64,000 nucleotides of DNA from Chamaea fasciata (Eukaryota > Chordata > Aves > Passeriformes > Sylviidae): NCBI GenBank assembly GCA_029207755.1, contig JARCOQ010000103.1, forward strand, positions 1 through 64,000, written 5' to 3'. Below are positions 1 through 64,000 of this stretch, in pieces. The translations under genes were made by a program, and so were the position numbers. The notes under the pieces are model-generated. The model had not been told where the DNA came from and ran no database searches. It saw only the letters and a program-made list of their open reading frames with translations. The stretch's first letter is position 1. Every line of letters starts with the position of its first letter.

Positions 1-969
1 GGTAAGTAAAGTCAGCTGCCCAGGTGCCTGATGTCAGTTTGTAGCAGGCCTTTGGCCCTCCATGGGAAGCCAGGCTTCCAGCTTGTGGCAGCTTGCATCT
101 GGAAGAAATCCTGTTCCGTTCGGGATTGTAGGTGGCCGAGGCCAGGTGCCCGGCAGAGGAAATTGGGCACAAAGGATGGCCTGTTTCCAGGGGTAAGTAA
201 AGTCAGCTGCCCAGGTGCCTGATGTCAGTTTGTAGCAGGCCTTTGGCCCTCCATGGGAAGGTAGGCTTCCACCTTGTGGCAGCTTGCATCTGGAAGAAAT
301 CCTGTTCCGTTCGGGATTGTAGGTGGCCGAGGCCAGGTGCCCGGCAGAGGGAGTTTGGCACAAATTATGGCCTGTTTCCAGGGGTAAGTAAAGTCAGCTG
401 CCCAGGTGCCTGATGTCAGTTTGTAGGAGGCCTTTGGCCCTCCAAGAGCAGCCAGGCTTCCAGCTTGTGGCAGCTTGCATCTGGAAGAAATCCTGTTCCG
501 TTTGGGATCGTAGGTGGCCGAGGCCTGGTGTCCGGCAGAGGGAGTTGGGAACAAAGGATGGCCTGTTTCCAGGGGTAAGTAAAGTTAGCTGGCCAGGTGC
601 TTAGTGTCAGTTTGTAGGAGGCCTTTGGCCCTCCAAGGGAAGCTAGTCTTCCAGTTTGTGGCTGCTTGCATCTGGAAGAAATCCTGTTCTATTTGAGAAT
701 GTAGGTGGCCGAGGCCTGCAGCCCGGCAGAGGGAGTTGGGCACAAATGATGGCCTGCTTCCAGGGGTAAGTAAAGTCAGCTTCCCATGTGCCTGATGTCA
801 GTTTGTAGGAGGCCTTTGGCCCTCTAAGGGAAGCTAGTCTTCCAGTTTGTGGCAGCTTGCATCTGGAAGAAATCCTGTTCCGTTCGGGATTGTAGGTGGC
901 CGAGGCCAGGTGCCCGGCAGAGGGAGTTGGGCACAAATTATGGCCTGTTTCCAGGGGTAAGTAAAGTAA

Positions 970-1922
970 CCTGCCCAGGTGCCTGATGTCAGTTTGTAGG
1001 AGGCCTTTAAGCCTCCAATTATGCCAGCCTTCCAGCTGGTGGCAGGTTGCATCTGGAAGAAATCCTGTTCCGTTCGTGACTGTAGGTGGCCGAGGCCGAG
1101 TGCTTGGCAGAGGGAGTTGTGCACAAAGGATGGCCTGCTTCCCGGGGTAAAAAAAGTCACCTACTCAGGTTCCTGATTTCAGTTTGTAGGAGGCCTTTGG
1201 TCCTCCAAGTTAAGCCAGCCTTCCAGATTGTGGCAGCTTGCATCTGGAAGAAATCCTGTTCCGTTCAAGATTGTAGGTGGCCGAGGCCGGGTGCCTGGCC
1301 GTGGGAGTTGGGCACAAAGGATGGCCTGTTTCCAGGGGTAAGTAAAGTCACCTACCCAGATACCTGATGTCAGTTTGTCGGAGGCCTTTGGCCCTCCAAG
1401 GGATGCCGGGTTTCCAACTTGAGGCAGCTTGCATCTGGAAGAAATACTGTTCCTTTCGGGATTGTCGGTGGCCGAGGCCGGGTGCCTGGTAGAGGGAGTT
1501 GGGCACAAATGATGGCCATTTTCCAGGAGTAAGTAAAGTCAGCTGCCAGGTGCCTGATGTCAGTTTGTAGGAGGCCTTTGGCCTTACAAGGGAAGCCGAG
1601 CTTTCAACATGTGGCAGCTTGCATCTGGAAGTAATCCTGTTCTGTTCGGGATTTTAGGTGGCCTAGACCGGGTGCCCAGCAGAGGGAGTTAGGCACAAAG
1701 GATGGCCTCTTTCCTGGGGTAAGTAAAGTCACCTGCCCACGTGCCTGATGTCAGTTTGTACGAGGCCTTTTGTCCTCCAAGGGATTCCAGTCTTCCTGCT
1801 TGTAGCAGCTTGCATCTGGAAGAAATCCTGTTCCGTTCGGGATTGAAGGTGCCATATGCCGGGTGCCCGCCACACGGAGTTGGGCACCAAGGATGGCCCT
1901 TTTCCAGGGGTAAGTAAAGTCA
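970..1922 (+). repeat. Five-monomer duplication, sub-copy 1 (953 bp)
   Basis: TTTAAGCCTCCAATTATGCC begins near 1007 here and 953 bp later in sub-copy 2. Diagnostic bases of sub-copy 1 are CAGGTTCCTGATTTC (near 1166), AAATACTGTTCC (near 1441), GAGCTTTCAAC (near 1589), AGGTGGCCTAG (near 1656), AGGTGCCATATGCC (near 1847) and GGCACCAAGGATGG (near 1883). Boundaries are approximate because the duplicated ends are themselves satellite. Confidence 0.85.
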
Positions 1923-2875
1923 GCTGCCCAGGTGCCTGATGTCAGTTTGTAGGAGGCCTTTAAGCCTCCAATTATGCCAGCCTTCCAGCTGGTGGCAGGT
2001 TGCATCTGGAAGAAATCCTGTTCCGTTCGTGACTGTAGGTGGCCGAGGCCGAGTGCTTGGCAGAGGGAGTTGTGCACAAAGGATGGCCTGCTTCCCGGGG
2101 TAAAAAAAGTCACCTACTCAGGTGCCTGATTTCAGTTTGTAGGAGGCCTTTGGTCCTCCAAGTTAAGCCAGCCTTCCAGATTGTGGCAGCTTGCATCTGG
2201 AAGAAATCCTGTTCCGTTCAAGATTGTAGGTGGCCGAGGCCGGGTGCCTGGCCGTGGGAGTTGGGCACAAAGGATGGCCTGTTTCCAGGGGTAAGTAAAG
2301 TCACCTACCCAGATACCTGATGTCAGTTTGTCGGAGGCCTTTGGCCCTCCAAGGGATGCCGGGTTTCCAACTTGAGGCAGCTTGCATCTGGAAGAAATCC
2401 TGTTCCTTTCGGGATTGTCGGTGGCCGAGGCCGGGTGCCTGGTAGAGGGAGTTGGGCACAAATGATGGCCATTTTCCAGGAGTAAGTAAAGTCAGCTGCC
2501 CAGGTGCCTGATGTCAGTTTGTAGGAGGCCTTTGGCCTTACAAGGGAAGCCGAGCTTCCAACATGTGGCAGCTTGCATCTGGAAGTAATCCTGTTCTGTT
2601 CGGGATTTTAGGTGACCTAGACCGGGTGCCCAGCAGAGGGAGTTAGGCACAAAGGATGGCCTCTTTCCAGGGGTAAGTAAAGTCACCTGCCCACGTGCCT
2701 GATGTCAGTTTGTACGAGGCCTTTTGTCCTCCAAGGGATTCCAGTCTTCCTGCTTGTAGCAGCTTGCATCTGGAAGAAATCCTGTTCCGTTCGGGATTGA
2801 AGGCGCCATATGCCGGGTGCCCGCCACACGGAGTTGGGCACCTAGGATGGCCCTTTTCCAGGGGTAAGTAAAGTC
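1923..2875 (+). repeat. Five-monomer duplication, sub-copy 2 (953 bp)
   Basis: Tandem partner of the preceding block, 5 x 191 minus 2 bp. It differs from sub-copy 1 by CAGGTGCCTGATTTC, AAATCCTGTTCC, GAGCTTCCAAC, AGGTGACCTAG, AGGCGCCATATGCC and GGCACCTAGGATGG. The corresponding stretch in the 30.5-kb and 34.3-kb HOR copies is single. Confidence 0.85.
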
Positions 2876-5800
2876 AGCTGCCCAGGTGCCTGATGTCAGT
2901 TTGAAGGGGCCTCTGGCCCTCCAAGGGAAGCCAGGCTTCCAGCTTGTGGCAGCTTGCATCTGGAAGAAATCCTTTTCCATTCGGGATTGTAGGTGGCCGA
3001 AGCCGGGTTCCCGCCACACAAAGTTGGGCACAAAGGATGGCCTTTTTCCAGGGGTAAGTAAAGTCAGCTGCCCAGGTGCCTGATGTCAGTTTGTAGGAGG
3101 CCTTTGGCCCTGCAAGGGAAGCTAGTCTTCCAGTTTGTGGCAGCATGCATCTGGAAGAAATCCTGTTCCGTTCGGGATTGTAGGTGGCCGAGGCCAGGTG
3201 CCCGGCAGAGGGAGTTGGGCACAAATGATGGCCTGTTTCCAGGGGTAAGTAAAGTTAGCTGCCCTGGTGCCTGATGTCAGTTTGTAGGAGGCCTTTGGCC
3301 CTCCAAGGGAAGCTAGTCTTCCAGTTTGTGGCAGCTTGCATCTTGAAGAAATGCTGTTCTACTCATGATTGTAGGTGATCGAGGCCAGGTGCCCGGCAGA
3401 GGGAGTTGGGCACAAATGATGGCCTGTTTCCAGGGGTAAGTAAAGTCAGCTGCCCAGGTGCCTGATGTCAGTTTTTAGCAGGCCTTTGGCCCTCCATGGG
3501 AAGCCAGGCTTCCAGCTTGTGGCAGCTTGCATCTGGAAGAAATCCTGTTCCGTTCGGGATTGTAGGTGTCTGGAGCCGGGAGGCCTGCTGAGGGAGTAGG
3601 GAACAAAGGATGGCCTGTTTCCAGGGGTAAGTAAAGTCAGCTGCCCAGGTGCCTGATGTCAGTTTGTAGGAGGCCTTTGGCCTCCAAGGGAAGCTAGTCT
3701 TCCAGTTTGTGGCAGCTTGCATCTGGAAGAAATCCAGTTCCGTTCGGGATTGTAGGTGGCCGAGGCCAGGTGCCCGGCAGAGGGAGTTGGGCACAAATGA
3801 TGGCCACTTTCCAGGGGTTAGTAAAGTCAGCTGCCCAGGTGTCTGATGTCAGTTTGTAGCAGGCCTTTGGCCCTCCATAAGAAGCCTTGCTTCCACCATG
3901 TTGCAGCATGCATCTGGAAGAAATGCTGATCCGTTCGGGATTGTAGGTGGCCGAGGCCAGGTGCCCGGCAGAGGGAGTTGGGAACAAAGGATGGCCTGTT
4001 TCCAGGGGTAAGTAAAGTCAGCTGCCCAGGTGTCTGATGTCAGTTTGTAGGAGGCCTTTGGCCCTCCAAGGCAAGCAAGTCTTCCAGATTGTGGCAGCTT
4101 GCATCTGGAAGAAATCCTGTTCCATTCGGGATTGTCGGTGGCCGAGGCCAGGTGCCCGGCCGAGGGAGTTGGGCACAAATTATGGCCTGTTTCCAGGGGT
4201 AAGTAAAGTCAGCTGCCCAGGTGCCTGATGTCAGTTTGTAGGAGGCCTTTGGCCCTCCAAGAGCAGCCAGGCTTCCAGCTTGTGGTAGCTTGCATCTTGA
4301 AGAAATCCTGTTCCGTTTGGGATCGTAGGTGGCCGAGGCCTTGTGCCCGGCTAAGGGAGTTGGGAACAAAGGATGGCCTGTTTCCAGGGGTAAGTAAAGT
4401 CAGCTGCCCAGGTGCCTGATGTCAGTTTGTAGGAGGCCTTTGGCCCTCCAAGGCAAGCAAGTCTTCCAGATTGTGGCAGCTTGCATCTGGAAGAAATCCT
4501 GTTCCGTTCGGGATTGTAGGTGGCCGAGGCCAGGTGCCGGCAGAGGGAGTTGGGCACAAATGATGGCCTGTTTCTAAGGGTAGGTAAAGTCATCTGCCCA
4601 GGTGCATGATGTCAGTTTGTAAGTGGCCTTTGGCCCTCCATGGGAAGCCAGGCTTCCAGCTTGTGGCAGCTTGCATCTGGAAGAAATCCTGTTCCGTTTG
4701 GGATTGTAGGTGGCCGAGGCCTGGTGCCCGGCAGAGGGAGTTGGGCACAAATGATGGCCTGTTTCCAGGGCTAAGTAAAGTCAGCTGCCCAGGTGCCTGA
4801 TGTCAGTTTGTAGGAGGCCTTTGGCCCTGCAAGGGAAGCTAGTCTTCCAGTTTGTGGCAGCATGCATCTGGAAGAAATCCTGTTCCGTTCGGGATTGTAG
4901 GTGGCCGAGGCCAGGTGCCCGGCAGAGGGAGTTGGGCACAAAGGATGGCCTGTTTCCAGGGGTAAGTAAAGTCAGCTGCCCAGGTTGCCTGATGTCAGTT
5001 TGTAGCAGGCCTTTGGCCCTCCATGGGAAGCCAGGCTTCCAGCTTGTGGCAGCTTGCATCTGGAAGAAATCCCGTTCCGTTCGGCGTTGTAGGTGTCCGG
5101 AGCCGGGTGGCCTGCTGAGGGAGTAGGGAACAAAGGATGGCCTGTTTCCAGGGGTAAGTAAAGTCAGCTGCCAGGTGCCTGATGTCAGTTTGTAGGAGGC
5201 CTTTGGCCCTCCATGGGAAGCTAGTCTTCCAGTTTGTGGCAGCTTGCATCTGGAAGAAATCCTGTTCCGTTCGGGATTGTAGGTGGCCGAGGCCAGGACC
5301 CGGCAGAGGGAGTTGGGCACAAATGATGGCCACTTTCCAGGGGTTAGTAAAGTCAGCTGCCCAGGTGTCTGATGTCAGTTTGTAGCAGGCCTTTGGCCCT
5401 CCATAAGAAGCCTGGCTTCCAGCTTGTTGCAGCATGCATCTGGAAGAAATGCTGTTCCGTTCGGGATTGTAGGTGGCCGAGGCCAGGTGCCCGGCAGAGG
5501 GAGTTGGGAACAAAGGATGGCCTGTTTCCAGGGGTAAGTAAAGTCAGCTGCCCAGGTGCCTGATGTCAGTTTGTAGGAGGCCTTTGGCCCTCCAAGGCAA
5601 GCAAGTCTTCCAGATTGTGGCAGCTTGCATCTGGAAGAAATCCTGTTCCATTCGGGATTGTAGGTGGCCGAGGCCAGGTGCCCGGCCGAGGGAGTTGGGC
5701 ACAAATGATGACCTGTTTCCAGGGGTAAGTAAAGTCAGCTGCCCAGGTGCCTGATGTCAGTTTGTAGGAGGCCTTTTGCCCTCCAAGAGCAGCCAGGCTT

Positions 5801-6540
5801 CCAGCTTGTGGTAGCTTGCATCTTGAAGAAATCCTGTTCCGTTTGGGATCGTAGGTGGCCGAGGCCTGGTGCCCGGCTAAGGGAGTTGGGAACAAAGGAT
5901 GGCCTGTTTCCAGGGGTAAGTAAAGTCAGCTGCCCAGGTGCCTGATGTCAGTTTGTAGGAGGCCTTTGGCCCTCCAAGGCAAGCAAGTCTTCCAGATTGT
6001 GGCAGCTTGCATCTGGAAGAAATCCTGTTCCATTCGGGATTGTAGGTGGCCGAGGCCAGGTGCCCGGCAGAGGGAGTTGGGCACAAATGATGGCCTGTTT
6101 CTAAGGGTAGGTAAAGTCATCTGCCCAGGTACATGATGTAAGTTTGTAAGTGGCCTTTGGCCCTCCATGGGAAGCCAGGCTTCCAGCTTGTGGCAGCTTG
6201 CATCTGGAAGAAATGCTGATCCGTTCGGGATTGTAGGTGGCCGAGGCCAGGTGCCCGGCAGAGGGAGTTGGGAACAAAGGATGGCCTGTTTCCAGGGGTA
6301 AGTAAAGTCAGCTGCCCAGGTGCCTGATGTCAGTTTGTAGGAGGCCTTTGGCCCTCCAAGGGAAGCCAGGCTTCCAGCTTGTGGCAGCTTGCATCTGGAA
6401 GAAATCCTGTTCCGTTTGGGATTGTAGGTGGCCGAGGCCTGGTGCCCGGCAGAGGGAGTTGGGCACAAATGATGGCCTGTTTCCAGGGGTAAGTAAAGTC
6501 AGCTGCCCAGGTGCCTGATGTCAGTTTGTAGTAGGCAATT

Positions 6541-8065
6541 GGCTTTTCAAGGGAAACTAGTCTTCCAGCTGTGGCCGCTTGCATCTGGAAGAAATCCTGT
6601 TCCATTCGGGATTGTAGGTGGCCGAGGCCAGGTGCCCGGCAGAGGGAGTTGGGCACAAAGGATGGCCTGTTTCCAGGGGTAAGTAAAGTCAGCTGCCCAG
6701 GTGCCTGATGTCAGTTTGTAGGAGGCCTTTGGCCCTCCAAGAGCAGCCAGGCTTCCAGCTTGTGGTAGCTTGCATCTTGAAGAAATCCTGTTCCGTTTGG
6801 GATCGTAGGTGGCCGAGGCCTGGTGCCCGGCTAAGGGAGTTGGGAACAAAGGATGGCCTGTTTCCAGGGGTAAGTAAAGTCAGCTGCCCAGGTGCCTGAT
6901 GTCAGTTTGTAGGAGGCCTTTGGCCCTCCAAGGCAAGCAAGTCTTCCAGATTGTGGCAGCTTGCATCTGGAAGAAATACTGTTCCATTCGGGATTGTAGG
7001 TGGCCGAGGCCAGGTGCCCGGCAGAGGGAGTTGGGCACAAATGATGGCCTGTTTCTAGGTGTAAGTAAAGTCAGCTGCCCAGGTGCCTGATGTCAGTTTG
7101 TAGGAGGCCTTTGGCCCTCCATGGGAAGCCAGGCTTCCAGCTTGTGGCAGCTTGCATCTGGAAGAAATCCTGTTCCGTTCGGGATTATAGGTGGCTGAGG
7201 CCAGGTGCCCGGCAGACGGAGTTGGGCACCAAGGATGGCCTGTTTCCAGGGGTAAGTAAAGTCAGCTGCCCAGGTGCCTGATGTCAGTTTGCAGGTGGCT
7301 ATTGTTCCTCCATGGGATGCCAGGCTTCCAGCTTGTGGCTGCTTGCATCTGGAAGTAATCCTGTTCCGTTCGGGATTGTAGGTGGCCGAGGCCTGGTGTC
7401 CGGCTAAGGTAGTTGGGCACAAAAGATGGCCTGTTTCCAGGGGTAAGTAAAGTTAGCTGCCCAGGTGCTTGGTGTCAGTTTGTAGGAGGCCTTTGGCCCT
7501 CCAAGGGAAGCTAGTCTTCCAGTTTGTGGCTGCTTGCATCTGGAAGAAATCCTGTTCTATTTGGGTATGTAGGTGGCCGAGGCCTGGTGCCCGCAGAGGG
7601 AGTTGGGCACAAAGGATGGACTGTTTCCAGAGGTAAGTAAAGTCAGCTGCCCAGGTGCCTGATGTCAGTTTGTAGGAGGCCTTTGGCCCTCTAAGGGAAG
7701 CTAGTCTTCCAGTTTGTGGCAGCTTGCATCTGGAAGAAATCCTGTTCCGTTCGGGATTGTAGGTGGCCGAGGCAGGTGCCCGGCAGAGGGAGTTGGGCAC
7801 AAGTGATGGCCTGTTTCCAGGGGTAAGTAAAGTCAGCTGCCCAGGTGCCTGATGTCAGTTTGTAGCAGGCCTTTAGCCCTCCAAGGGAAGCCAGGCTTCC
7901 AGCTTGTGGCAGCTTGCATCTTGAAGAAATCCTGTTCCGTTTGGGATTGTCGGTGGCCGATGCCTGGTGCCCGGCAGAGGGAGTTGGGCACAAATGATGG
8001 CCTGTTTCCAGGGGTAAGTAAATTCAGCTGCCCAGGTGCCTGATGTCAGTTTGTAGTAGGCATTT
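6541..8065 (+). repeat. HOR unit B-1, 8 monomers (1525 bp)
   Basis: Bounded by successive GGCTTTTC phase markers. It is two bases shorter than its 41,077 paralogue because of 1-bp losses in GCCCGCAGAGG (near 7,590) and GAGGCAGGTGCC (near 7,771). Confidence 0.82.
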
Positions 8066-9972
8066 GGCTTTTCAAGGGAAACTAGTCTTCCAGCTGTGGC
8101 AGCTTGCATCTGGAAGAAATCCTGTTCCATTCGGGATTGTAGGTGGCCGAGGCCAGGTGCCCGGCAGAGGGAGTTGGGCACAAATGATGGCCTGTTTTCA
8201 GGGTAAGTAAAGTTAGCTGCCCAGGTGCCTGATGTCAGTTTGTAGGAGGCCTTTGGCCCTCCAAGGCAAGCAAGTCTTCCAGATTGTGGCAGATTGCATC
8301 TGGAAGAAATCCTGTTCCATTCGGGATTGTAGGTGGCCGAGGCCAGGTGCCCGGCAGAGGGAGTTGGGCACAAATGATGGCCTGTTTCCAGGGGTAAGTA
8401 AAGTCAGCTGCCCAGGTGCCTGATGTCAGTTTGTAGGAGGCCTTTGGCCCTCCAAGGCAAGCAAGTCTTCCAGTTTTTGGCGGCTTGCATCTGGAAGAAA
8501 TCCTGTTCCGTTCGGGAATGTAGGTGGCCGAGGCCAGGTGCCCGGCAGAGGGAGTTGGGCACAAATGATGGACTGTTTCCAGGGGTAAGTAAAGTCAGCT
8601 GCCCAGGTGTCTGATGTCAGTTTGTAGCAGGCCTTTGGCCTCCATGGGAAGCCTGGCTTCCAGCTTGTGGCAGCTTGCATCTGGAAGAAATGCTGATCCG
8701 TTCGGGATTGTAGGTGGCCGAGGCCAGGTGCCCGGCAGAGGGAGTTGGGCACAAAGGATGGCCTGTTTCCAGGGGTAAGTAAAGTTAGCTTCCCAGGTGC
8801 CTGGTGTCAGTTTGTAGGAGGCCTTTGGCCCTCCAAGGGAAGCTAGTCTTCCAGTTTGTGGCAGCTTGCATCTTGAAGAAATGCTGTTTTGCTCGGGAGT
8901 GTAGGTGGCCGAGGCCTGGTGCCTGGCAGAGGGAGTTGGGCACAAATCATGGACTGTTTCCACGGGTAAGTAAAGTCAGCTGCCCAGGTGTCTTATGTCA
9001 GTTTGTAGCAGGCCTTTGGCCCTCCATGGAAAGCCTGGCTTCCAGCTTGTGGCAGCTTGCATCTGGAAGAAATCCTGTTCCATTCGGGATTGTAGGTGCC
9101 GAGGCCAGGTGTCCGGCAGAGGGAGTTGGGAACAAAGGATGGCCTGTTTCCAGGGGTAAGTAAAGTCAGCTGCCCAGGTGCCTGATGTCAGTTTGTAGGA
9201 GGCCTTTGGCCCTCCAAGGGAAGCCAGGCTTCCAGCTTGTGGCAGCTTGCATCTGGAAGAAATCCTGTTCCGTTTGGGATTGTAGGTGTCCGAGGCCAGG
9301 TGCCCGGCAGAAAGAGTTGGGCACAAAGGATGGCCTGTTTCCATGGGTAAGTAAAGTCAGCTGCCCAGGTGCCTGATGTCAGTTTGTAGCAGGCCTTTGG
9401 CCCTCCATGGGAAGCCTGGCTTCCAGCTTGTGGCAGCTTGCATTTGGAAGAAATGCTGATCCGTTCGGGATTGTAGTTGGTCGAGGCCAGGTGCCCGGCA
9501 GAGGGAGTTGGGAACAAAGGATGGCCTGTTTCCAGGGGTAAGTAAAGTCAGCTGCCCAGGTGCCTGATGTCAGTTTGTAGGAGGCCTTTGGCCCTCCAAG
9601 GGAAGCCAGGCTTCCAGCTTGTGGCAGCTTGCATCTGGAAGAAATCCTGTTCTGTTCTGGGATTGTCGGTGGCCGAGGCCAGGTGCCCGGCAGAGGGAGT
9701 TGGGCACAAATGATGGCCTGTTTCCAGGGGTAAGTAAAGTCAGCTGCCCAGGTGCCTGATGTCAGTTTGTAGCAGGCCTTTAGCCCTCCAAGGGAAGCCA
9801 GGCTTCCAGCTTGTGGCAGCTTGCATCTTGAAGAAATCCTGTTCCGTTTGGGATTGTCGGTGGCCGATGCCTGGTGCCCGGCAGAGGGAGTTGGGCACAA
9901 ATGATGGCCTGTTTCCAGGGGTAAGTAAATTCAGCTGCCCAGGTGCCTGATGTCAGTTTGTAGTAGGCATTT
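8066..9972 (+). repeat. HOR unit B-2, 10 monomers (1907 bp)
   Basis: Its paralogue at 42,604 has only five monomers. Several private 1-bp indels lie here: CTGTTTTCAGGGTAAG near 8,192, TTTGGCCTCCATGG near 8,635, TAGGTGCCGAGG near 9,092 and an extra base in GTTCTGTTCTGGG near 9,648. Confidence 0.82.
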
Positions 9973-11688
9973 GGCTTTTCAAGGGAAACTAGTCTTCCAG
10001 CTGTGGCAGCTTGCATCTGGAAGAAATCCTGTTCCATTCGGGATTGTAGGTGGCCGAGGCCAGGTGCCCGGCAGAGGGAGTTGGGCACAAATGATGGCCT
10101 GTTTCCAGGGGTAAGTAAAGTCAGCTGCCCAGGTGCCTGATGTCAGTTTGTAGGAGGCCTTTAGCCCTCCAAGAGCAGCCAGGCTTCCGGCTTGTGGTAG
10201 CTTGCATCTGGAAGAAATCCTGTTCCGTTCGGGATTGTAGGTGGCCGAGGCCTGGTGCCCGGCTAAGGGAGTTGGGAACAAAGGATGGCCTGTTTCCAGG
10301 GGTAAGTAAAGACAGCTGCCCAGGTGCCTGATGTCAGTTTGTAGGAGGCCTTTGGCCCTCCAAGGCAAGCAAGTCTTCCAGATTGTGGCAGCTTGCATCT
10401 GGAAGAAATCCTGTTCCATTCGGGATTGTAGGTGGCCGAGGCCAGGTGCCCTGCTGAGGGAGTTGGGCACAAATGATGGCCTGTTTCCAGGGGTAAGTAA
10501 AGTCAGCTGCCCAGGTGCCTGATGTCAGTTTGTAGGAGGCCTTTGGCCCTCCATGGGAAGCCAGGCTTCCAGCTTGTGGCAGCTTGCATCTGGAAGAAAT
10601 CCTGTTCCGTTCGGGATTATAGGTGGCCGACCAGGTGCCCGGCAGAGGGAGTTGGGAACAAAGGATGGCCTGTTTCCAGGGGTAAGTAAAGTCAGCTGCC
10701 CAGGTGCCTGATGTCAGTTTGTAGGTGGCTATTGTTCCTCCATGGGATGCCAGGCTTCCAGCTTGTGGCAGCTTGCATCTGGAAGTAATCCTGTTCCGTT
10801 CGGGATTGTAGGTGTCCGAGGCCTGGTGCCCGGCAGAAAGAGTTGGGCACAAAGGATGGCCTGTTTCCAGGGGTAAGTAAAGTCAGCTGCCCAGGTGCCT
10901 GAAGTCAGTTTGTAGCAGGCCTTTGGCACTCCATGGGAAGCCTGGCTTCCAGCTTGTGGCAGCTTGCATCTGGAAGAAATGCTGATCCGTTCGGGATTGT
11001 AGGTGGCCGAGGCCAGGTGCCCGGCAGAGGGAGTTGGGAACAAAGGATGGCCTGTTTCCAGGCGTAAGTAAAGTTAGCTGCCCAGGTGCCTGGTGTCAGT
11101 TTGTAGGAGGCCTTTGGCCCTCCATGGGAAGCTAGTCTTCCAGTTTGTGGCAGCTTGCATCTGGAAGAAATGCTGTTTTGCTCGGGAGTGTAGGTGGCCG
11201 AGGCCTGGTGCCTGGCAGAGGGAGTTGGGCACAAATGATGGACTGTTTCCAGGGGTAAGTAAAGTCAGCTGCCCAGGTGCCTGATGTCAGTTTGTAGCAG
11301 GCCTTTGGCCCTCCATGGGAAGCCAGGCTTCCAGCTTGTGGCAGCTTGCATCTGGAAGAAATCCTGTTTCGTTCGGGATTGTAGGTGGCCGAGGCCAGGT
11401 GCCCAGCAGAAGAAATTGGGCATAAAGGATGGCCTGTTTCCAGGGGTAAGTAAAGTCAGCTGCCCAGGTGCCTGATGTCAGTTTGTAGGAGGCCTTTGGC
11501 CCTCCAAGGGAAGCCAGGCTTCCAGCTTGTGGCAGCTTGCATCTTGAAGAAATCCTGTTCCGTTTGGGATTGTCGGTGGCCTATGCCTGGTGCCCGGCAG
11601 AGGGAGTTGGGCACAAATGATGGCCTGTTTCCAGGGGTAAGTAAAGTCAGCTGCCCAGGTGCCTGATGTCAGTTTGTAGTAGGCATTT
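9973..11688 (+). repeat. HOR unit B-3, 9 monomers (1716 bp)
   Basis: Colinear with 43,558-45,275, and shorter by a 2-bp loss in GGCCGACCAGGTGCC near 10,625 (paralogue: GGCCGAGGCCAGG). Confidence 0.83.
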
Positions 11689-26396: not shown

Positions 26397-26411
26397 GGAA
26401 GCCAGGCTTCC
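26397..26411. other. Inverted repeat 1 of the monomer (7-bp arms, 1-nt centre)
   Basis: GGAAGCC-A-GGCTTCC is a perfect palindrome apart from its single central base. It occurs in every monomer variant that reads GGGAAGCCAGGCTTCC. It is broken in variants reading GAAGCTAGTCTTCC or GCAAGCAAGTCTTCC, so it is present in only a subset of HOR positions. It could extrude as a small hairpin, though a 1-nt centre is sterically tight and the arms would have to open slightly. Confidence 0.85.
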
Positions 26412-26437
26412 AGCTTGTGGCAGCTTGCATCTGGAAG
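26407..26437. other. Inverted repeat 2 of the monomer (7-8 bp arms, 17-nt spacer)
   Basis: CTTCCAG and CTGGAAG are perfect reverse complements flanking a 17-nt spacer. In variants with AGTCTTCCAG the arms grow to 8 bp (TCTTCCAG/CTGGAAGA). The left arm shares CTTCC with the right arm of inverted repeat 1, so the two hairpins exclude each other. The right arm, in GCATCTGGAAGAAATCC, is among the best conserved parts of the array. The recurrent variant GCATCTTGAAG weakens it by one base pair. Confidence 0.85.
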
Positions 26438-26464
26438 AAATCCTGTTCTGTTCGGGATTGTAGG

Positions 26465-26476: not shown

Positions 26477-26477
26477 G

Positions 26478-40800: not shown

Positions 40801-41076
40801 GAGTTGGGAACAAAGGATGGCCTGTTTCCAGGGGTAAGTAAAGTCAGCTGCCCAGGTGCCTGATGTCAGTTTGTAGGAGGCCTTTGGCCCTCCAAGGGAA
40901 GCCAGGCTTCCAGCTTGTGGCAGCTTGCATCTGGAAGAAATCCTGTTCCGTTTGGGATTGTAGGTGGCCGAGGCCAGGTGCCCGGCAGAGGGAGTTGGGC
41001 ACAAATGATGGCCTGTTTCCAGGGGTAAGTAAAGTCAGCTGCCCAGGTGCCTGATGTCAGTTTGTAGTAGGCAATT

Positions 41077-53101: not shown

Positions 53102-55558
53102 GGCTTTTCAAGGGAAACTAGTCTTCCAGCTGTGGCCGATTACATCTGGAAGAAATCCTGTTCCATTCGGGATTGTAGGTGGCCGAGGCCAGGTGCCCGG
53201 CAGAGGGAGTTGGGCACAAATGATGGCCTGTTTCCAGGGGTAAGTAAAGTCAGCTGCCCAGGTGCCTGATGTCAGTTTGTAGGAGGCCTTTGGCCCTCCA
53301 AGAGCAGCCAGGCTTCCAGCTTGTGGTAGCTTGCATCTTGAAGAAATCCTGTTCCGTTTGGGATCGTAGGTGGCCGAGGCCTGGTGCCCGGCTAAGGGAG
53401 TTGGGCACAAAGGATGGCCTTTTTCCAGGGGTAAGTAAAGTCAGCTGCCCAGGTGCCTGATGTCAGTTTGTAGGAGGCCTTTGGCCCTCCAAGGTAAGCA
53501 AGTCTTCCAGATTGTGGCAGCTTGCATCTGGAAGAAATCCTGTTCCATTCGGGATTGTAGGTGGCCGAGGCCAGGTGCCCGGCAGAGGGAGTTGGGCACA
53601 AATGATGGCCTGTTTCTAGGGGTAAGTAAAGTCAGCTGCCCAGGTGCCTGATGTCAGTTTGTAGGAGGCCTTTGGCCCTCCATGGGAAGCCAGGCTTCCA
53701 GCATGTGGCAGCTTGCATCTGGAAGAAATCCTGTTCCGTTCAGGATTATAGGTGGCTGAGGCCAGGTGCCCGGCAGACGGAGTTGGGCACCAAGGATGGC
53801 CTGTTTCCAGGGGTAAATAAAGTCAGCTGCCCAGGTGCCTGATATCAGTTTGCAGGTGGCTATTGTTCCTCAATGGGATGCCAGGCTTCCAGCTTGTGGC
53901 TGCTTGCATCTGGAAGTAATCCTGTTCCGTTTGGGATCGTAGGTGGCCGAGGCCTGGTGTCCGGCTAAGGTAGTTGGGAACAAAAGATGGCCTGCTTCCA
54001 GGGGTAAGTAAAGTTAGCTGCCCAGGTGCTTGGTGTCAGTTTGTAGGAGGCCTTTAGCCCTCCAAGGGAAGCTAGTCTTCCAGTTTGTGGCAGCTTGCAT
54101 CTGGAAGAAATTCTGTTCTGTTTGGGATTGTAGGTGGCCGAGGCCTGGTGCCCGGCAGAGGGAGTTGGGCACAAATGATGGCCTGTTTCCAGGGCTGAGT
54201 AAAGTCAGCTGCCCAGGTGCCTGATGTCAGTTTGTAGGAGGCCTTTGGCCCTGCAAGGGAAGCTAGTCTTCCAGTTTGTGGCAGCATGCATCTGGAAGAA
54301 ATCCTGTTCCGTTCGGGATTGTAGGTGGCCGAGGCCTGGTGCCCGGCAGAGGGAGTTGGGAACAAATGATGGCCTGTTTCCAGGAGTAAGTAAAGTTAGC
54401 TGCCCAGGTGCCTGATGTCAGTTTGTAGGAGGCCTTTGGCCCTCCAAGGGAAGCTAGTCTTCCAGTTTGTGGCAGCTTGCATCTTGAAGAAATGCTGTTC
54501 TGCTCATGATTGTAGGCGGCCGAGGCCAGGTGCCCGGCAGAGGGAGTTGGGCACAAATGATGGCCTGTTTCCAGGGGTAAGTAAAGTCAGCTGCCCAGGT
54601 GCCTGATGTCAGTTTGTAGCAGGCCTTTGGCCCTCCATGGGAAGCCAGGCTTCCAGCTTGTGGCAGCTTGCATCTGGAAGAAATCCTGCTCCGTTCGGGA
54701 TTGTAGGTGGCCGAGGCCAGGTGCCCAGCAGAGGGAGTTTGGCACAAATGATGGCCTGTTTCCAGGGGTAAGTAAAGTCAGCTGCCCAGGTGCCTGATGT
54801 CAGTTTGTAGGAGGCCTTTGGCACTCCATGGGAAGCCAGGCTTCCAGCTTGTGGCAGCTTGCATCTGAATGAAATCCTGTTCCGTTTGGGATTGTAGGTG
54901 GCCGAGGCCTGGTGCCCGGCAGAGGGAGTTGGGCACAAATGATGGCCTGTTTCCAGGGGTAAGTAAAGTCAGCTGCCCAGGTGCCTGATGTCAGTTTGTA
55001 GGAGGCCTTTGGCCCTTCAAGGGAAACTAGTCTTCTAGATAGTGGCAGCTTGCATCTGGAAGAAATGCTGTTCCATTCGGTATTGTAGGTGGCCGAGGCC
55101 AGGTGCCTGGCAGAGGGAGTTGGGCACAAAGATGGCCTGTTTCCAGGGGTAAGTAAAGTCAGCTGCCCAGGTGCCTGATGTCAGTTTGTAGGAGGCCTTT
55201 GGCCCTCCAAGGGAAGCCAGGCTTCCAGCTTGTGGAAGCTTGCATCTGGAAGAAATCCTGTTCCATTCGGGATTGTAGGTGGCCGAGGCCAGGTGCCCGG
55301 CAGAGGGAGTTGGGCACAAATGATGGCCTGTTTCCAGGGGTAAGTAAAGTCAGCTGCCCAGGTGCCTGATGTCAGTTTGTAGGAGGCCTTTGGCTTTCCA
55401 AGGGAAGCAAGTCTTCCAGTTTGTGGCAGCTGGCATCTGGAAGAAATCCTGTTCCATCCGGGATTATAGGTGGCCGAGGCCTGGTACCCGGCAGAGGGAG
55501 TTGGGCACAAAGATGGCCTGTTTCCAGGGGTAAGTAAAGTCAGCTGCCCAGGTGCCTG

Positions 55559-57040
55559 ATGTCAGTTTGTAGGAGGCCTTTGGCCCTGCAAGGGAAGCTA
55601 GTCTTCCAGTTTGTGGCAGCATGCATCTGGAAGAAATCCTGTTCCGTTCGGGATTGTAGGTGGCCGAGGCCAGGTGCCCGGCAGAGGGAGTTGGGAACAA
55701 AGGATGGCCTGTTTCCAGGGGTAAGTAAAGTTAGCTGCCCAGGTGCCTGATGTCAGTTTTTAGGAGGCCTTTGGCCTGCCAAGGGAAGCTAGTCTTCCAG
55801 TTTGTGGCAGCTTGCATCTTGAAGAAATGCTGTTCTGCTCATGATTGTAGGTGGCCGAGGCCAGGTGCCTGGCAGAGGGAGTTGGGCACAAATGATGGCC
55901 TGTTTCCAGGGGTAAGTAAAGTCAGCTGCCCAGGTGCCTGATGTCAGTTTGTAGGAGGCCTTTGGCCCTTCAAGGGAAACTAGTCTTCCAGATTGTGGCA
56001 GCTTGCATCTGGAAGAAATGCTGTTCCATTCGGTATTGTAGGTGGCCGAGGCCAGGTGCCTGGCAGAGGGAGTTGGGAACAAAGGATGGCCTGTTTCCAG
56101 GGGTAAGTAAAGTCAGCTGCCCAGGTGCCTGATGTCAGTTTGTAGGAGGCCTTTGGCCCTCCAAGGGAAGCCAGGCTCCCAGCTTGTGGCAGCATGCATC
56201 TGGAAGAAATCCTGTTCCGTTTGGGATTGTAGGTGGCCGAGGCCAGGTGCCCAGCAGAGGGAGTTGGGCACAAATGATGGCCTGTTTCCAGGGGTAAGTA
56301 CAGTCAGCTGCCCAGGTGTCTGATGTCAGTTTGTAGTAGGCCTTTGGCTTTTCAAGGGAAACTAGTCTTCCAGTTTGTGGCAGCTTGCATCTGGAAGAAA
56401 TCCTGTTCCATTCGAGATTGTAGGTGGCCGAGGCCAGGTGCCCGGCAGAGGGAGTTGGGCACAAATGATGGCCTGTTTCCAGGGGTAAGTAAAGTCAGCT
56501 GCCCAGGTGCCTGATGTCAGTTTGTAGGAGGCCTTTGGCCCTCCAAGGGAAGCCAGTCTTCCAGTTTGTGGCAGCTTGCATCTGGAAGAAATCCTGTTCC
56601 ATTCGGGATTGTAGGTGGCCGAGGCCTGGTGACCGGCCGAGGGAGTTGGGCACAAAGATGGCCTGTTTCCAGGGGTAAGTAAAGTCAGCTGCCCAGGTGC
56701 CTGATGTCAGTTTGTAGGAGGCCTTTGGCCCTCCATGGGAAGCCTGGCTTCCAGCATGTGGCAGCTTGCATCTGGAAGAAATGCTGATCCGTTCGGGATT
56801 GTAGGTGGCCGAGGCCAGGTGCCCGGCAGAGGGAGTTGGGAACAAAGGATGGCCTGTTTCCAGGGGTAAGTAAAGTTAGCTGCCCAGGTGCCTGGTGTCA
56901 GTTTGTAGGAGGCCTTTGGCCCTCCAAGGGAAGGTAGTCTTCCAGTTTGTGGCAGCTTCCATCTTGAAGAAATGCTGTTTTGCTCGGGAGTGTAGGTGGC
57001 CGAGGCCTGGTGCCTGGCAGAGGGAGTTGGGCACAAATGA
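55559..57040 (+). repeat. Internal duplication in C', copy 1
   Basis: Monomers at 55,559 and 55,750 recur at 58,804 and 58,995 (offset 3245 bp). Those from 55,941 to about 57,040 recur at an offset of 3436 bp, one extra monomer having been gained in the later copy. Confidence 0.78.
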
Positions 57041-58803
57041 TGGACTGCTTCCAGGGGTAAGTAAAGTCAGCTGCCCAGGTGGCTGATGTCAGTTTGTAGG
57101 AGGCCTTTGGCCCTTCAAGGGAAACTAGTCTTCCAGATTGTGGCAGCTTGCATCTGGAAGAAATGCTGTTCCATTCGGTGTTGTAGTTGGCCGAGGCCAG
57201 GTGCCTGGCAGAGGGAGTTGGGCACAAATGATGGCCTGTTTCCAGGGGTAAGTAAAGTCAGCTGCCCAGGTGCCTGATGTCAGTTTGTAGGAGGCCTTTG
57301 GCCCTCCAAGGGAAGCCAGGCTTCCAGCTTGTGGCAGCTTGCATCTGGAAGAAATCCTGTTCCGTTTGGGATTGTAGGTGGCCGAGGCCTGGTGCCCGGC
57401 AGAGGGAGTTGGGCACAAATGATGGCCTGTTTCCAGGGGTAAGTAAAGTCAGCTGCCCAGGTGTCTGATGTCAGTTTGTAGTAGGCCTTTGGCTTTTCAA
57501 GGGAAACTAGTCTTCCAGTTTGTGGCAGCTTGCATCTGGAAGAAATCCTGTTCCATTCGGGATTGTAGGTGGCCGAGGCCAGGTGCCCGGCAGAGGGAGT
57601 TGGGCACAAATGATGGCCTGTTTCCAGGGGTAAGTAAAGTCAGCTGCCCAGGTGCCTGATGTCAGTTTGTAGGAGGCCTTTGGCCCTCCAAGGGAAGCCA
57701 GGCTTCCAGCTTGTGGCAGCTTGCATCTGGAAGAAATCCTGTTCCATTCGGGATTGTAGGTGGCCGAGGCCAGGTGCCCGGCACAGGGAGTTGGGCACAA
57801 ATGATGGCCTGTTTCCAGGGGTAAGTAAAGTCAGCTGCCCAGGTGCCTGATGTCAGTTTGTAGGAGGCCTTTGGCTTTCCAAGGGAAGCAAGTCTTCCAG
57901 TTTGTGGCAGCTGGCATCTGGAAGAAATCCTGTTCCATTCGGGATTATAGGTGGCCGAGGCCTGGTGCCCGGCAGAGGGAGTTGGGCACAAAGATGGCCT
58001 GTTTCCAGGGGTAAGTAAAGTCAGCTGCCCAGGTGCCTGATGTCAGTTTGTAGGAGGCCTTTGGCCCTGCAAGGGAAGCTAGTCTTCCAGATTGTGGCAG
58101 CTTGCATCTGGAAGAAATCCTATTCCGTTCGGGATTGTAGGTGGCCGAGGCCAGGTGCCCGGCAGAGGGAGTTGGGAACAAAGGATGGCCTGTTTCCAGG
58201 GGTAAGTAAAGCTAGCTGCACAGGTGCCTGATGTCAGTTTGTAGCAGGCCTTTGGCCCTCCATGGGAAGCCAGGCTTCCAGATTTTGGCAGCTTGCATCT
58301 GGAAGAAATCCTGTTCTGTTCGGGATTGTAGGTGGACGAGGCCAGGTGCCCGGCAGAGGGAGTTGGGCACAAATGATGGCCTGTTTCCAGGGGTAAGTAA
58401 AGTCAACTGCCCAGGTGCCTGATGTCAGTTTGTAGGAGGCCTTTGGCCCTCCAAGGGAAGCAAGTCTTCCAGTTTGTGGCAGCTTGCATCGCGAAGAAAT
58501 CCTGTTCCGTTCGGGATTGTAGGTGGCCGAGGCCAGGTGCCCGGCAGAGGGAGTTGGGCACAAATGATGGCCTGTTTCCAGGGGTAAGTAAAGTCAGCTG
58601 CCCAGGTGCCTAATGTCAGTGTGCAGGTGGCTATTGTTCCTCCATGGGAAGCCAGGCTTCCAGCTTGTGGCTCCTTGCATCTGGAAATAATCCTGTTCCG
58701 CTCGGGATTGTAGGTGGCCGAGGCCTGGTGCCCGGCAGAGGGAGTTGGGCACAAAGGATGGCCTGTTTCCAGGGCTAAGTAAAGTCAGCTGCCCAGGTGC
58801 CTG

Positions 58804-60476
58804 ATGTCAGTTTGTAGGAGGCCTTTGGCCCTGCAAGGGAAGCTAGTCTTCCAGTTTGTGGCAGCATGCATCTGGAAGAAATCCTGTTCCGTTCGGGATT
58901 GTAGGTGGCCGAGGCCAGGTGCCCGGCAGAGGGAGTTGGGAACAAAGGATGGCCTGTTTCCAGGGGTAAGTAAAGTTAGCTGCCCAGGTGCCTGATGTCA
59001 GTTTGTAGGAGGCCTTTGGCCCTCCAAGGGAAGCTAGTCTTCCAGTTTGTGGCAGCTTGCATCTTGAAGAAATGCTGTTCTGCTCATGATTGTAGGTGGC
59101 CGAGGCCAGGTGCCCGGCAGAGGGAGTTTGGCACAAATGATGGCCTGTTTCCAGGGGTAAGTAAAGTCAGCTGCCCAGGTGCCTGATGTCAGTTTGTAGC
59201 AGGCCTTTGGCCCTCCATGGGAAGCCAGGCTTCCAGCTTGTGGCAGCTTGCATCTGAAAGAAATCCTGTTCCGTTTGGGATTGTAGGTGGCCGAGGCCTG
59301 GTGCCTGGCAGAGGGAGTTGGGCACAAATGATGGCCTGTTTCCAGGGGTAAGTAAAGTCAGCTGCCCAGGTGCCTGATGTCAGTTTGTAGGAGGCCTTTG
59401 GCCCTTCAAGGGAAACTAGTCTTCCAGATTGTGGCAGCTTGCATCTGGAAGAAATGCTGTTCCATTCGGTATTGTAGGTGGCCGAGGCCAGGTGCCTGGC
59501 AGAGGGAGTTGGGCACAAATGATGGCCTGTTTCCAGGGGTAAGTAAAGTCAGCTGCCCAGGTGCCTGATGTCAGTTTGTAGGAGGCCTTTGGCCCTCCAA
59601 GGGAAGCCAGGCTTCCAGCTTGTGGCAGCTTGCATCTGGAAGAAATCCTGTTCCGTTTGGGATTGTAGGTGGCCGAGGCCTGGTGCCCGGCAGAGGGAGT
59701 TGGGCACAAATGATGGCCTGTTTCCAGGGGTAAGTAAAGTCAGCTTCCCAGGTGTCTGATGTCAGTTTGTAGTAGGCCTTTGGCTTTTCAAGGGAAACTA
59801 GTCTTCCAGTTTGTGGCAGCTTGCATCTGGAAGAAATCCTGTTCCATTCGAGATTGTAGGTGGCCGAGGCCAGGTGCCAGGCAGAGGGAGTTGGGCACAA
59901 ATGATGGCCTGTTTCCAGGGGTAAGTAAAGTCAGCTGCCCAGGTGCCTGATGTCAGTTTGTAGGAGGCCTTTGGCGCTCCAAGGGAAGCCAGTCTTCCAG
60001 TTTATGGCAGCTTGCATCTGGAAGAAATCCTGTTCCATTCGGGATTGTAGGTGGCCGATACCTGGTGACCGGCCGAGGGAGTTGGGCACAAAGATGGCCT
60101 GTTTCCAGGGGTAAGTAAAGTCAGCTGCCCAGGTGCCTGATGTCAGTTTGTAGGAGGCCTTTGGCCCTCCATGGGAAGCCTGGCTTCCAGCATGTGGCAG
60201 CTTGCATCTGGAAGAAATGCTGATCCGTTCGGGATTGTAGGTGGCCGAGGCCAGGTGCCCGGCACAGGGAGTTGGGAACAAAGGATGGCCTGTTTCCAGG
60301 GGTAAGTAAAGTTAGCTGCCCAGGTGCCTGGTGTCAGTTTGTCGGAGGCCTTTGGCCCTCCAAGGGAAGCTAGTCTTCCAGTTTGTGGCAGCTTCCATCT
60401 TGAAGAAATGCTGTTTTGCTCGGGAGTGTAGGTGGCCGAGGCCTGGTGCCTGGCAGAGGGAGTTGGGCACAAATGA
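58804..60476 (+). repeat. Internal duplication in C', copy 2
   Basis: Partner of 55,559-57,040, with one additional monomer near 59,186. It is followed by a different continuation from copy 1. The 57,277-57,659 monomers recur instead at 63,386-63,768. Confidence 0.78.
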
Positions 60477-63400
60477 TGGACTGTTTCCAGGGGTAAGTAA
60501 AGTCAGCTGCCCAGGTGCCTGATGTCAGTTTGTAGCAGGCCTTTGGCCCTCCATGGGAAGCCAGGCTTCCAGCTTGTGGCAGCTTGCATCTGGAAGAAAT
60601 CCTGTTCCGTTCGGGATTGTTGGTGGCCGAGGCCAGGTGCCCGGCAGAGGAAATTGGGCACAAAGGATGGCCTGTTTCCAGGGGTAAGTAAAGTCAGCTG
60701 CCCAGGTGCCTGATGTCAGTTTGTAGGAGGCCTTTGGCACTCCATGGGAAGCCAGGCTTCCAGCTTGTGGCAGCTTGCATCTGAATGAAATCCTGTTCCG
60801 TTTGGGATTGTAGGTGGCCGAGGCCTGGTGCCCGGCAGAGGGAGTTGGGCACAAATGATGGCCTGTTTCCAGGGGTAAGTAAAGTCAGCTGCCCAGGTGC
60901 CTGATGTCAGTTTGTAGGAGGCCTTTGGCCCTCCAAGAGCTGCCTGGCTTCCAGCTTCTGGTAGCTTGCATCTTGAAGAAATCCTGTTCCGTTTGGGATC
61001 GTAGGTGGCTGAGGCCTGGTGCCCGGCTAAGGGAGTTGGGAACAAAGAATGGCCTGTTTCCAGGGGTAAGTAAAGTCAGCTGCCCAGGTGCCTGATGTCA
61101 GTTTGTAGGAGGCCTTTGGCCCTCCAAGGCAAGCAAGTCTTCCAGATTGTGGCAGCTTGCATCGCGAAGAAATCCTCTTCCGTTCGGGATTGTAGGTGTC
61201 CGAGGCCAGGTGCCCGGCAGAGGGAGTTGGGCACAAATGATGGCCTGTTTCCAGGGGTAAGTAAAGTCAGCTGCCCAGGTGCCTGATGTCAGTTTGTAGG
61301 AGGCCTTTGGCCCTCCAAGGGAAGCCAGTCTTCCAGTTTGTGGCAGCTTGCATCTGGAAGAAATCCTGTTCCATTCGGGATTATAGGTGGCCGAGGCCTG
61401 GTGCCCGGCAGAGGGAGTTGGGCACAAAGATGGCCTGTTTCCAGGGGTAAGTAAAGTCAGCTGCCCAGGTGCCTGATGTCAGTTTGTAGGAGGCCTTTAG
61501 CCCTGCAAGGGAAGCTAGTCTTCCAGTTTGTGGCAGCTTGCATCTGGAAGAAATCCTGTTCCGTTCGGGATTGTAGGTGGCCGAGGCCAGGTGCCCGGCA
61601 GAGGGAGTTGGGAACAAAGGATGGCCTGTTTCCAGGGGTAAGAAAAGCTAGCTGCACAGGTGCCTGATGTCAGTTTGCAGCAGGCCTTTGGCCCTCCATG
61701 GGAAGCCAGGCTTCCAGCTTTTGGCAGCTTGCATCTGGAAGAAATCCTGTTCTGTTCGGGATTGTAGGTGGCCGAGGCCAGGTGCCCGGCAGAGGAAGTT
61801 GGGCACAAATGATGGCCTGTTTCCAGGGGTAAGTAAAGTCAGCTGCCCAGGTGCCTGATGTCAGTTTGTAGCAGGCCTTTGGCCCTCCTAGGGAAGCAAG
61901 TCTTCCAGTTTGTGGCAGCTTGCATCGCGAAGAAATCCTGTTCTGTTCGGGATTGTAGGTGGCCGAGGGCTGGTGCCCGGCAGAGGGAGTTGGGCACAAA
62001 TGATGGCCTGTTTCCAGGGGTAAGTAAAGTCAGCTGCCCAGGTGCCTAATGTCAGTGTGCATGTGGCTATTGTTCCTCCATGGGAAGCCAGGCTTCCAGC
62101 TTGTGGCTCCTTGCATCTGGAAATAATCCTGTTCCGCTCGGGATTGTAGGTGGCTGAGGCCTTGGGCCCGGCAGAGGGAGTTGGGCACAAAGGATGGCCT
62201 GTTTCCAGGGCTAAGTAAAGTCAGCTGCCCAGGTGCATGATGTCAGTTTGTAGGAGGCCTTTGGCCCTCCAAGGGAAGCTAGTCTTCCAGTTTGTGGCAG
62301 CATGCATCTGGAAGAAATCCTGTTCCGTTCGGGATTGTAGGTGGCCGAGGCCAGGTGCCCGGCAGAGGGAGTTGGGAACAAAGGATGGCCTGTTTCCAGG
62401 GGTAAGTAAAGTTAGCTGCCCAGGTGCCTGATGTCAGTTTGTAGGAGGACTTTGGCCCTCCAAGAAAAGCCAGGCTTCCAGCTTCTGGCAGCTTGCATCT
62501 GAATGAAATCCTGTTCCGTTTGGGATTGTAGGTGGCCGAGGCCTGGTGCCCGGCAGAGGGAGTTGGGCACAAATGATGGCCTGTTTCCAGGGGTAAGTAA
62601 AGTCAGCTGCCCAGGTGCCTGATGTCAGTTTGTAGGAGGCCTTTGGCCCTTCAAGGGAAACTTGTCTTCCAGATTGTGGCAGCTTGCATCTGGAAGAAAT
62701 GCTGTTCCATTCGAGATTGTAGGTGGCCGAGGCCAGGTGCCTGGCAGAGGGAGTTGGGCACAAATGATGGCCTGTTTCCAGGGGTAAGTAAAGTCAGCTG
62801 CCCAGGTGCCTGATGTCAGTTTGTAGGAGGCCTTTGGCCCTCCAAGAGCTGCCCGGCTTCCAGCTTCTGGTAGCTTGCATCTTGAAGAAATCCTGTTCCG
62901 TTTGGGATCGTAGGTGGCCGAGGCCTGGTGCCCGGCTAAGGGAGTTGGGAACAAAGAATGGCCTGTTTCCAGGGGTAAGTAAAGTCAGCTGCCCAGGTGC
63001 CTGATGTCAGTTTGTAGGAGGCCTTTGGCCCTCCAAGGCAAGCAAGTCTTCCAGATTGTGGCAGCTTGCATCTGGAAGAAATCCTATTCCGTTCGGGATT
63101 GTAGGTGGCCGAGGCCAGGTGCCCGGCAGAGGGAGTTGGGAACAAAGGATGGCCTGTTTCCAGGGGTAAGTAAAGTTAGCTGCACAGGTGCCTGATGTCA
63201 GTTTGTAGCAGGCCTTTGGCCCTCCATGGGAAGCCAGGCTTCCAGCTTGTGGCAGCTTGCATCTGGAAGAAATCCTGTTCCGTTCGGGATTGTAGGTGGC
63301 CGAGGCCAGGTGCCCGGCACAGGGAGTTGGGCACAAATGATGGCCTGTTTCCAGGCGTAAGTAAAGTCAGCTGCCCAGGTGCCTGATGTCAGTTTGTAGG

Positions 63401-64000
63401 AGGCCTTTGGCCCTCCAAGGGAAGCCAGGCTTCCAGCTTGTGGCAGCTTGCATCTGGAAGAAATCCTGTTCCGTTTGGGATTGTAGGTGGCCGAGGCCTG
63501 GTGCCCGGCAGAGGGAGTTGGGCACAAATGATGGCCTGTTTCCAGGGGTAAGTAAAGTCAGCTGCCCAGGTGTCTGATGTCAGTTTGTAGTAGGCCTTTG
63601 GCTTTTCAAGGGAAACTAGTCTTCCAGTTTGTGGCAGCTTGCATCTGGAAGAAATCCTGTTCCATTCGGGATTGTAGGTGGCCGAGGCCTGGTGCCCGGC
63701 AGAGGGAGTTGGGCACAAAGGATGGCCTGTTTCCAGGGGTAAGTAAAGTCAGCTGCCCAGGTGCCTGATGTCAGTTTGTAGGAGGCCTTTGGCCCTCCAA
63801 GGGAAGCTAGTCTTCCAGTTTGTGGCAGCTTGCATCTGGAAGAAATCCTATTCCGTTCGGGATTGTAGGTGGCCGAGGCCAGGTGCCCGGCAGAGGGAGT
63901 TGGGAACAAAGGATGGCCTGTTTCCAGGGGTAAGAAAAGCTAGCTGCACAGGTGCCTGATGTCAGTTTGTAGCAGGCCTTTGGCCCTCCATGGGAAGCCA

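What the first reader, a model, noticed from the sequence alone, without database searches (positions are those of the whole stretch)
1..64000. Colinear 30-34 kb super-repeat above the HOR level
The tract order E-B-C at 1-27,124 is repeated as E-B'-C' from 30,175 to the end. Local offsets run from 30,525 to 34,539 bp, and nearly all changes in offset are whole numbers of monomers. This is a third level of organisation above monomer and HOR, implying that tens of kilobases of satellite were copied as a block and then remodelled.
Basis: partly seen in the sequence, partly recalled or inferred. Interest (0 to 1): 0.75.

Follow-up and report, generated by a model that had tools for sequence, protein, structure and literature searches.

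The report
Recent 33-kb duplication inside satellite array
A stretch of repetitive satellite DNA about 27-33 thousand bases long occurs twice in the same order, almost letter for letter, which looks like a recent block duplication later edited by small gains and losses; it is a clear record of how such arrays change, but two copies do not show a regular higher level of repetition.

Summary
The whole window is one head-to-tail 191-bp satellite (335 monomers). Monomers of 1-26,332 pair in the same order with 30,526-59,919: 111 pairs, 99.1% identical, against about 91% for random cross-half pairs. No shuffle reached the observed score (0 of 300 at each of five block sizes). But the window has two copies only; nine divergent monomers between them (27,097-28,807) have no close partner, and the last 4 kb is not a third copy. 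Whole-monomer offset changes are no evidence, because the whole array is in register. This is best called a recent segmental duplication inside a satellite array, not yet a third level of periodicity. Out-of-register exchange or break-induced replication is the likely mechanism; the data do not choose, and the order of the smaller events in tract E is unresolved. Organism, flanks and centromere activity could not be tested: the genome search did not answer in nine tries.

The parts
1..27096 (+).
   Evidence: Colinear path of 111 monomers starts at monomer 0; monomers 138-141 still have partners at lags 151-167 with 1-5 differences, 142 has none close
30526..59919 (+). Copy 2 (E'-B'-C'), paired part, monomers 160-313
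   Evidence: Same path; 111 of its 154 monomers paired
59920..64000 (+). Tail after the path: resembles the third tract of copy 1 (mostly lags about 183-218) and, for many monomers, the tract 18 monomers earlier; no spacer and no run of E
   Evidence: Per-monomer best matches; 6 of 21 with <=2 differences at lag 140-215
27097..28807 (+). Divergent spacer, nine monomers (142-150, one of 184 bp) without a close partner in the window
   Evidence: Best match at |lag| 140-215 differs by 11-32, nearest anywhere by 8-25
28808..29762 (+). Five-monomer extra fragment of the start of tract E (monomers 151-155)
   Evidence: 0-3 differences from monomers 0-4 and 160-164
29763..30144 (+). Monomers 156-157, no close partner (4-8 differences)
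   Evidence: not part of the 20-monomer repeat (lag-20 differences 24 and 15)
30145..33961 (+). First unit (U1) of a 20-monomer tandem duplication in E', monomers 158-177
   Evidence: Lag-20 differences over the 20 monomers: 11 in all, each 0-3
33962..37777 (+). Second unit (U2) of that duplication, monomers 178-197
   Evidence: As above; the likeness stops sharply at 178/198 (14 differences)
1923..1949 (+). Place in copy 1 where the offset changes from 30,526 to 33,389 (15 monomers fewer than copy 2)
   Evidence: Breakpoint interval of least mismatch
956..2862 (+). Five-monomer tandem repeat in copy 1: monomers 5-9 and 10-14
   Evidence: 1-4 differences at lag 5
6181..6214 (+). Place in copy 1 where five monomers present in copy 2 are absent
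   Evidence: Offset 33,581 to 34,536; breakpoint interval
16217..17361 (+). Six monomers (85-90) of copy 1 without a partner on the path, part of a local 10-monomer repeat
   Evidence: Gap of 1,145 bp; lag -10 is a best local match for five of the six
20989..23851 (+). Local 10-monomer tandem repeat in the third tract of copy 1
   Evidence: Monomers 110-114 to 120-124, 0.2 differences per monomer

Best explanation
One fairly recent out-of-register copying event inside a 191-bp satellite array duplicated a block of about 27 kb or more, so that the two copies now lie 30-34 kb apart. Smaller in-register events then deleted or added runs of about 1 to 15 monomers in either copy, most strongly in the third tract. 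Shown: colinearity, low divergence of the well-aligned core, in-register indels, and local repeats shared by both copies. Inferred: that it was one event, and the mechanism (unequal sister-chromatid exchange, or break-induced replication restarting behind the fork). Not resolved: the order of the 20-monomer duplication in E' and the block copy. No function of the block is shown; it is most likely a by-product of array turnover.
For: Path of 111 monomers, 99.1% identical, against shuffles. Trimmed core (85 of the 111 path monomers): 42 substitutions in 16,215 bp, 0.26%, even across ten blocks (Monte Carlo p = 0.11). Near-identical runs of four or more monomers occur at lags <=60 (38 run-monomers) and 140-215 (123) but not at 61-139 or above 215 (a monomer may count more than once): a distinct event, not a smear. 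For monomers 0-101 the far partner is closer than the best relative within 60 monomers in 66 of 88 pairs, so most local repeats there look older than the block copy. Of 26 local duplicate pairs of copy 1 with both partners on the path, 22 are also similar (<=3 differences) in copy 2. Two rare bases (6 of 335 and 2 of 335 monomers) are carried together only by monomers 14 and 189, one in each copy, so two versions of that part of E probably existed before the block copy. Literature: unequal exchange and break-induced replication (BIR) as sources of duplications in arrays (PMC8997354, passages); [quoted passage not shown]
Against: Before trimming, ten core blocks (94 of 111 path monomers) were uneven (0.05% to 0.92%; chi2 26.6, 9 df, p = 0.0016); nine edge monomers were dropped after seeing this, and 17 poorly matching path monomers were never in the core. 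In the third tract the far partner is closer than the local relative in 5 of 23, equal in 5, farther in 13; seen from copy 2, closer in 57, equal in 26, farther in 28 of 111. 31 of 142 copy-1 monomers and 43 of 154 copy-2 monomers are off the path. A simple tandem copy that included the divergent spacer would show the spacer again left of 1 or right of 64,000; neither could be read. Monomers 10-13 of copy 1 mostly carry array-common bases where 5-8, 165-168 and 185-188 share rarer ones (5 of 6 sites), so E has a mosaic history that one copy event plus simple losses does not fully describe. Logsdon et al. [quoted passage not shown]
Confidence: 0.74

Rival explanations
1. A true super-HOR: a unit of about 160-181 monomers recurs periodically through the array, and the window shows two of many copies.
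For: Two colinear copies, and copy 1 is cut by the left edge of the window.
Against: No third copy inside the window: most of the tail of 21 monomers pairs with the third tract and not with the spacer or E; no near-identical runs of four or more monomers at lags above 215.
Confidence: 0.12
2. Assembly artefact: two haplotypes of one locus, or a misjoined repeat, laid end to end.
For: 0.26% divergence with monomer-scale indels is a range that alleles could also show (general knowledge); the substitutions are unusually rich in transversions (14 ts, 28 tv).
Against: No N in the window; a divergent spacer lies between the copies; 11 structural junctions separate them. No reads were available to test the join.
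Confidence: 0.1
3. Many smaller transfers (gene conversion or repeated small duplications) between two older blocks keep them alike.
For: Untrimmed blocks differ in divergence (0.05% at 1-1,908, 0.76% at 17,744-19,461, 0.92% at 25,569-26,332); the mosaic of rare bases in E suggests at least some conversion or exchange.
Against: Order is kept over 26 kb; trimmed divergence is even (p = 0.11).
Confidence: 0.04

Closest known systems
Unequal exchange and break-induced replication models of satellite arrays (Smith 1976 and Rice 2020 as described in PMC8997354; passages seen)
   Same: Head-to-tail array, duplications and deletions in monomer register, nested repeats
   Different: The copied block here (about 27 kb or more, about 142 monomers) is far longer than the local 5- to 20-monomer repeats of the same window
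Primate cascading HORs, up to the 59mer of orangutan chromosome 13 (PMC11276891; passages seen)
   Same: Long units with repeated monomer types inside; nearly identical copies (0.1% apart there)
   Different: The 59mer is listed in eight copies, six canonical; here two copies of a stretch two to three times as long, with large indels between them
Saltatory amplification in human centromeres (PMC11062924; passages seen)
   Same: Many gains and losses of units in a short time, new intermixed with old
   Different: There it is spread of new HORs over more than 1 Mb; here one colinear block copy
Avian ~190-bp satellites, including the zebra finch repeat that I recall as Tgut191A
   Same: Monomer length only (recalled, no sequence compared)
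   Different: Not tested; the name with 'centromere' gave 0 papers

Membership tests
Satellite DNA array | Head-to-tail tandem monomers of uniform length and strand | tested here: met
   335 monomers cut with a + strand consensus, 334 of 335 of 189-192 bp
Higher-order repeat (HOR) at about 33 kb | Copies much more alike than the monomers within them | tested here: met
   99.1% against about 91%
Higher-order repeat (HOR) at about 33 kb | Recurs in tandem, three or more copies at regular spacing | tested here: inconclusive
   Two copies in the window, no third inside it; flanks not readable (and eight earlier tries)
Segmental tandem duplication within an array | Two colinear near-identical blocks | tested here: met
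Segmental tandem duplication within an array | Divergence consistent with one time of copying | tested here: inconclusive
   Uneven before trimming (p = 0.0016), even after (p = 0.11)
Segmental tandem duplication within an array | Breakpoints at the ends of the block | tested here: inconclusive
   Left end lies at or beyond the window edge; right end is blurred by remodelling
Functional centromere satellite | CENP-A occupancy | not testable with these tools
   No chromatin data. The CENP-B box core (motif recalled) has 0 matches on either strand; absence does not exclude a centromere satellite
Avian 190-bp satellite (Tgut191A as recalled) | Sequence similarity to the published monomer | not tested
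   No reference sequence at hand; a paper search for six short stretches (three of the monomer, each on both strands) found 0 papers

The most novel reading that the evidence does not exclude
The array is built of a periodic unit of roughly 160-181 monomers (30-34 kb), about three times the 59mer that PMC11276891 calls the largest primate HOR unit, and it spreads by block copying (for instance break-induced replication tracts of that length) rather than by HOR-sized exchange.
Probability: 0.1. Interest if true: 0.72.

Novelty: new member of a known kind. Interest (0 to 1): 0.38.

Why it matters
Models of satellite turnover differ in how long a single copying event can be. A young two-copy block of about 27 kb or more, with its later edits still readable monomer by monomer, gives a size for one event and a set of smaller gains and losses around it. 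If flanking copies exist it would be an unusually long periodic unit.

Tried and rejected
A BLAST self-comparison gave no useful rows (3 rows, one off-diagonal of 260 bp) and was replaced by the monomer alignment. The first shuffle control (8 shuffles, all 37) was weak, because alignments within the unshuffled half could set the floor; it was replaced. Whole-monomer offset changes as evidence: rejected as trivial. 63,738-63,997 against 1-260 (95%) as a third copy: rejected, since that is far less alike than the block copies and the last monomer is closest to others at lags -218 and -208 (1 difference). Order of events in E: I first took the 20-monomer duplication to be older than the block copy, with a 15-monomer loss in copy 1 (diagnostic sites). 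One search does not bear this out: monomer 14 shares two rare bases with 189, but 10-13 mostly carry array-common bases where 5-8, 165-168 and 185-188 share rarer ones, and an ancestor like copy 1 that later gained and lost monomers in copy 2 fits as well or better. The order is left open. Breakpoint phase: four intervals usable, too few for a claim. Rfam on 1-8,000 only: 0 matches. Short conserved stretches: 0 matches in viral contigs and in genome contigs (bacteria and archaea), so no relative was found there. Passages of PMC5023761, PMC7713956, PMC4053949, PMC9859433 and PMC11157248 were also seen and did not identify it.
Full report
What is there. The window is a single 191-bp satellite from end to end: TRF reports 335.4 copies with 90% matches over 1-64,000. 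I cut it into 335 monomers: 279 of 191 bp, 48 of 190, four of 192, three of 189 and one of 184 (same cutting). Two monomers differ by a median of 17 of 195 alignment columns. GC is 55% (base counts), CpG observed/expected is 0.26, and the CENP-B box core (motif recalled) is absent on both strands. The CpG depletion fits a methylated vertebrate-like genome, but that is inference; the organism was not identified.

The duplication. A monomer-level local alignment limited to lags of 100 or more gives one long colinear path: monomers 0-137 against 160-313, that is 1-26,332 against 30,526-59,919, with 111 pairs in 12 blocks. Block offsets are 30,525, 33,389, 33,581, 34,536, 33,586, 33,205, 33,014, 31,869, 30,724 (one monomer, 5 differences), 33,396, 33,967 and 33,587. 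The mean difference is 1.64 per monomer (99.1%); 75 of 111 pairs differ by 0 or 1, against 0.7% of random cross-half pairs.

Controls. Reversing the second half gives 19 against 608. Shuffling it in blocks of 1, 5, 10, 20 or 40 monomers never reached 608 in 300 trials each; maxima were 28, 227, 402, 521 and 606. The last comes close because blocks of 40 keep much of the order. Of 1,484 24-mers occurring exactly twice, 1,019 are 30-35 kb apart. Monomers with a partner at two differences or fewer: 250 of 335 at |lag| 140-215 and 51 of 335 at |lag| 61-136, strips of equal width. Runs of four or more such pairs total 38 monomers at lags up to 60, none at 61-139, 123 at 140-215, none above (a monomer may be counted in several runs).

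What does not follow. Since the array is in register throughout, equivalent positions always lie a whole number of monomers apart; the observation carries no weight. That needs recurrence. Between the copies lie nine divergent monomers (27,097-28,807), whose best partner at |lag| 140-215 differs by 11-32 and whose nearest relative anywhere differs by 8-25, then a five-monomer fragment of the start of E (28,808-29,762; 0-3 differences) and two further monomers before the 20-monomer repeat begins at 30,145. After the second copy, the 21 monomers of 59,920-64,000 mostly resemble the third tract. No third copy is present.

Divergence. Ten core blocks hold 94 of the 111 path monomers; the other 17, poorly matched or next to such, were left out. 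Over these 17,934 bp there are 69 substitutions, unevenly spread (0.05% to 0.92%; p = 0.0016). Several sit at block edges next to breakpoints. After dropping nine edge monomers, 42 substitutions remain in 16,215 bp, 0.26%, and the blocks are even (p = 0.11). The trimming was decided after seeing the edges, so the evenness is suggestive only. For monomers 0-101 (1-19,461), 66 of 88 path monomers are closer to their far partner than to any relative within 60 monomers; for monomers 102-141, 5 of 23 are closer, 5 equal and 13 farther. Seen from copy 2 the figures are 57 closer, 26 equal and 28 farther of 111. So most local repeats in the first two thirds of copy 1 look older than the block copy, while the third tract was rebuilt around or after it.

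Order of events in tract E. E' holds a 20-monomer tandem duplication, 30,145-33,961 and 33,962-37,777, with 11 differences over 20 monomers, about as diverged as the two block copies. Copy 1 instead has a five-monomer repeat (monomers 5-9 and 10-14). Monomer 14 of copy 1 and monomer 189 of copy 2 are the only two of 335 that carry both of two rare bases, so two versions of this piece probably existed before the block copy, unless conversion moved them later. But monomers 10-13 mostly carry array-common bases where 5-8, 165-168 and 185-188 share rarer ones (5 of 6 sites). Either a copy-1-like or a copy-2-like ancestor can be made to fit, with conversion or extra losses. I leave the order open.

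Mechanism. Out-of-register sister exchange and break-induced replication both give in-register duplications and deletions (PMC8997354, passages). BIR is reported to copy more than 100 kb and to raise base substitution in yeast (PMC11034957, passages). The data do not choose. No function is shown for the block itself.

Known and new. Nested duplications in satellite arrays are well known. The largest primate HOR unit named in PMC11276891 (passages) is a 59mer in eight copies; the block here is about 142 monomers or more, in two copies. It is best filed as a new example of segmental duplication within an array. The bold reading, a periodic unit of 160-181 monomers, is open but lacks a third copy.

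Noticed in passing
window 1-26,141 against copy 2 (ten trimmed core blocks): Differences between the copies are rich in transversions: 14 transitions and 28 transversions; distinct variants seen once in the array show 28 and 55. Vertebrate germline change is usually transition-rich (recalled). Cause unknown: mutation process, conversion, or sequencing/assembly error.
   Followed up: partly
window 27,097-28,807: Nine strongly divergent monomers in the middle of a more homogeneous array, including the only 184-bp monomer; they may be a relic of an old array edge or an unhomogenised island.
   Followed up: partly
window 7,499-7,502; 18,576-18,578; 18,823-18,825: Some differences between the copies come as clusters of two or three within a few bases, which may be multi-base mutations or short conversion tracts.
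   Followed up: no
monomer boundaries, e.g. window 184-198: The junction reads TTTCCAGGGGTAAGT, which resembles a splice acceptor next to a splice donor (recalled motifs); 261 of 335 monomers begin GGTAAGTAAAGT. Probably chance.
   Followed up: no
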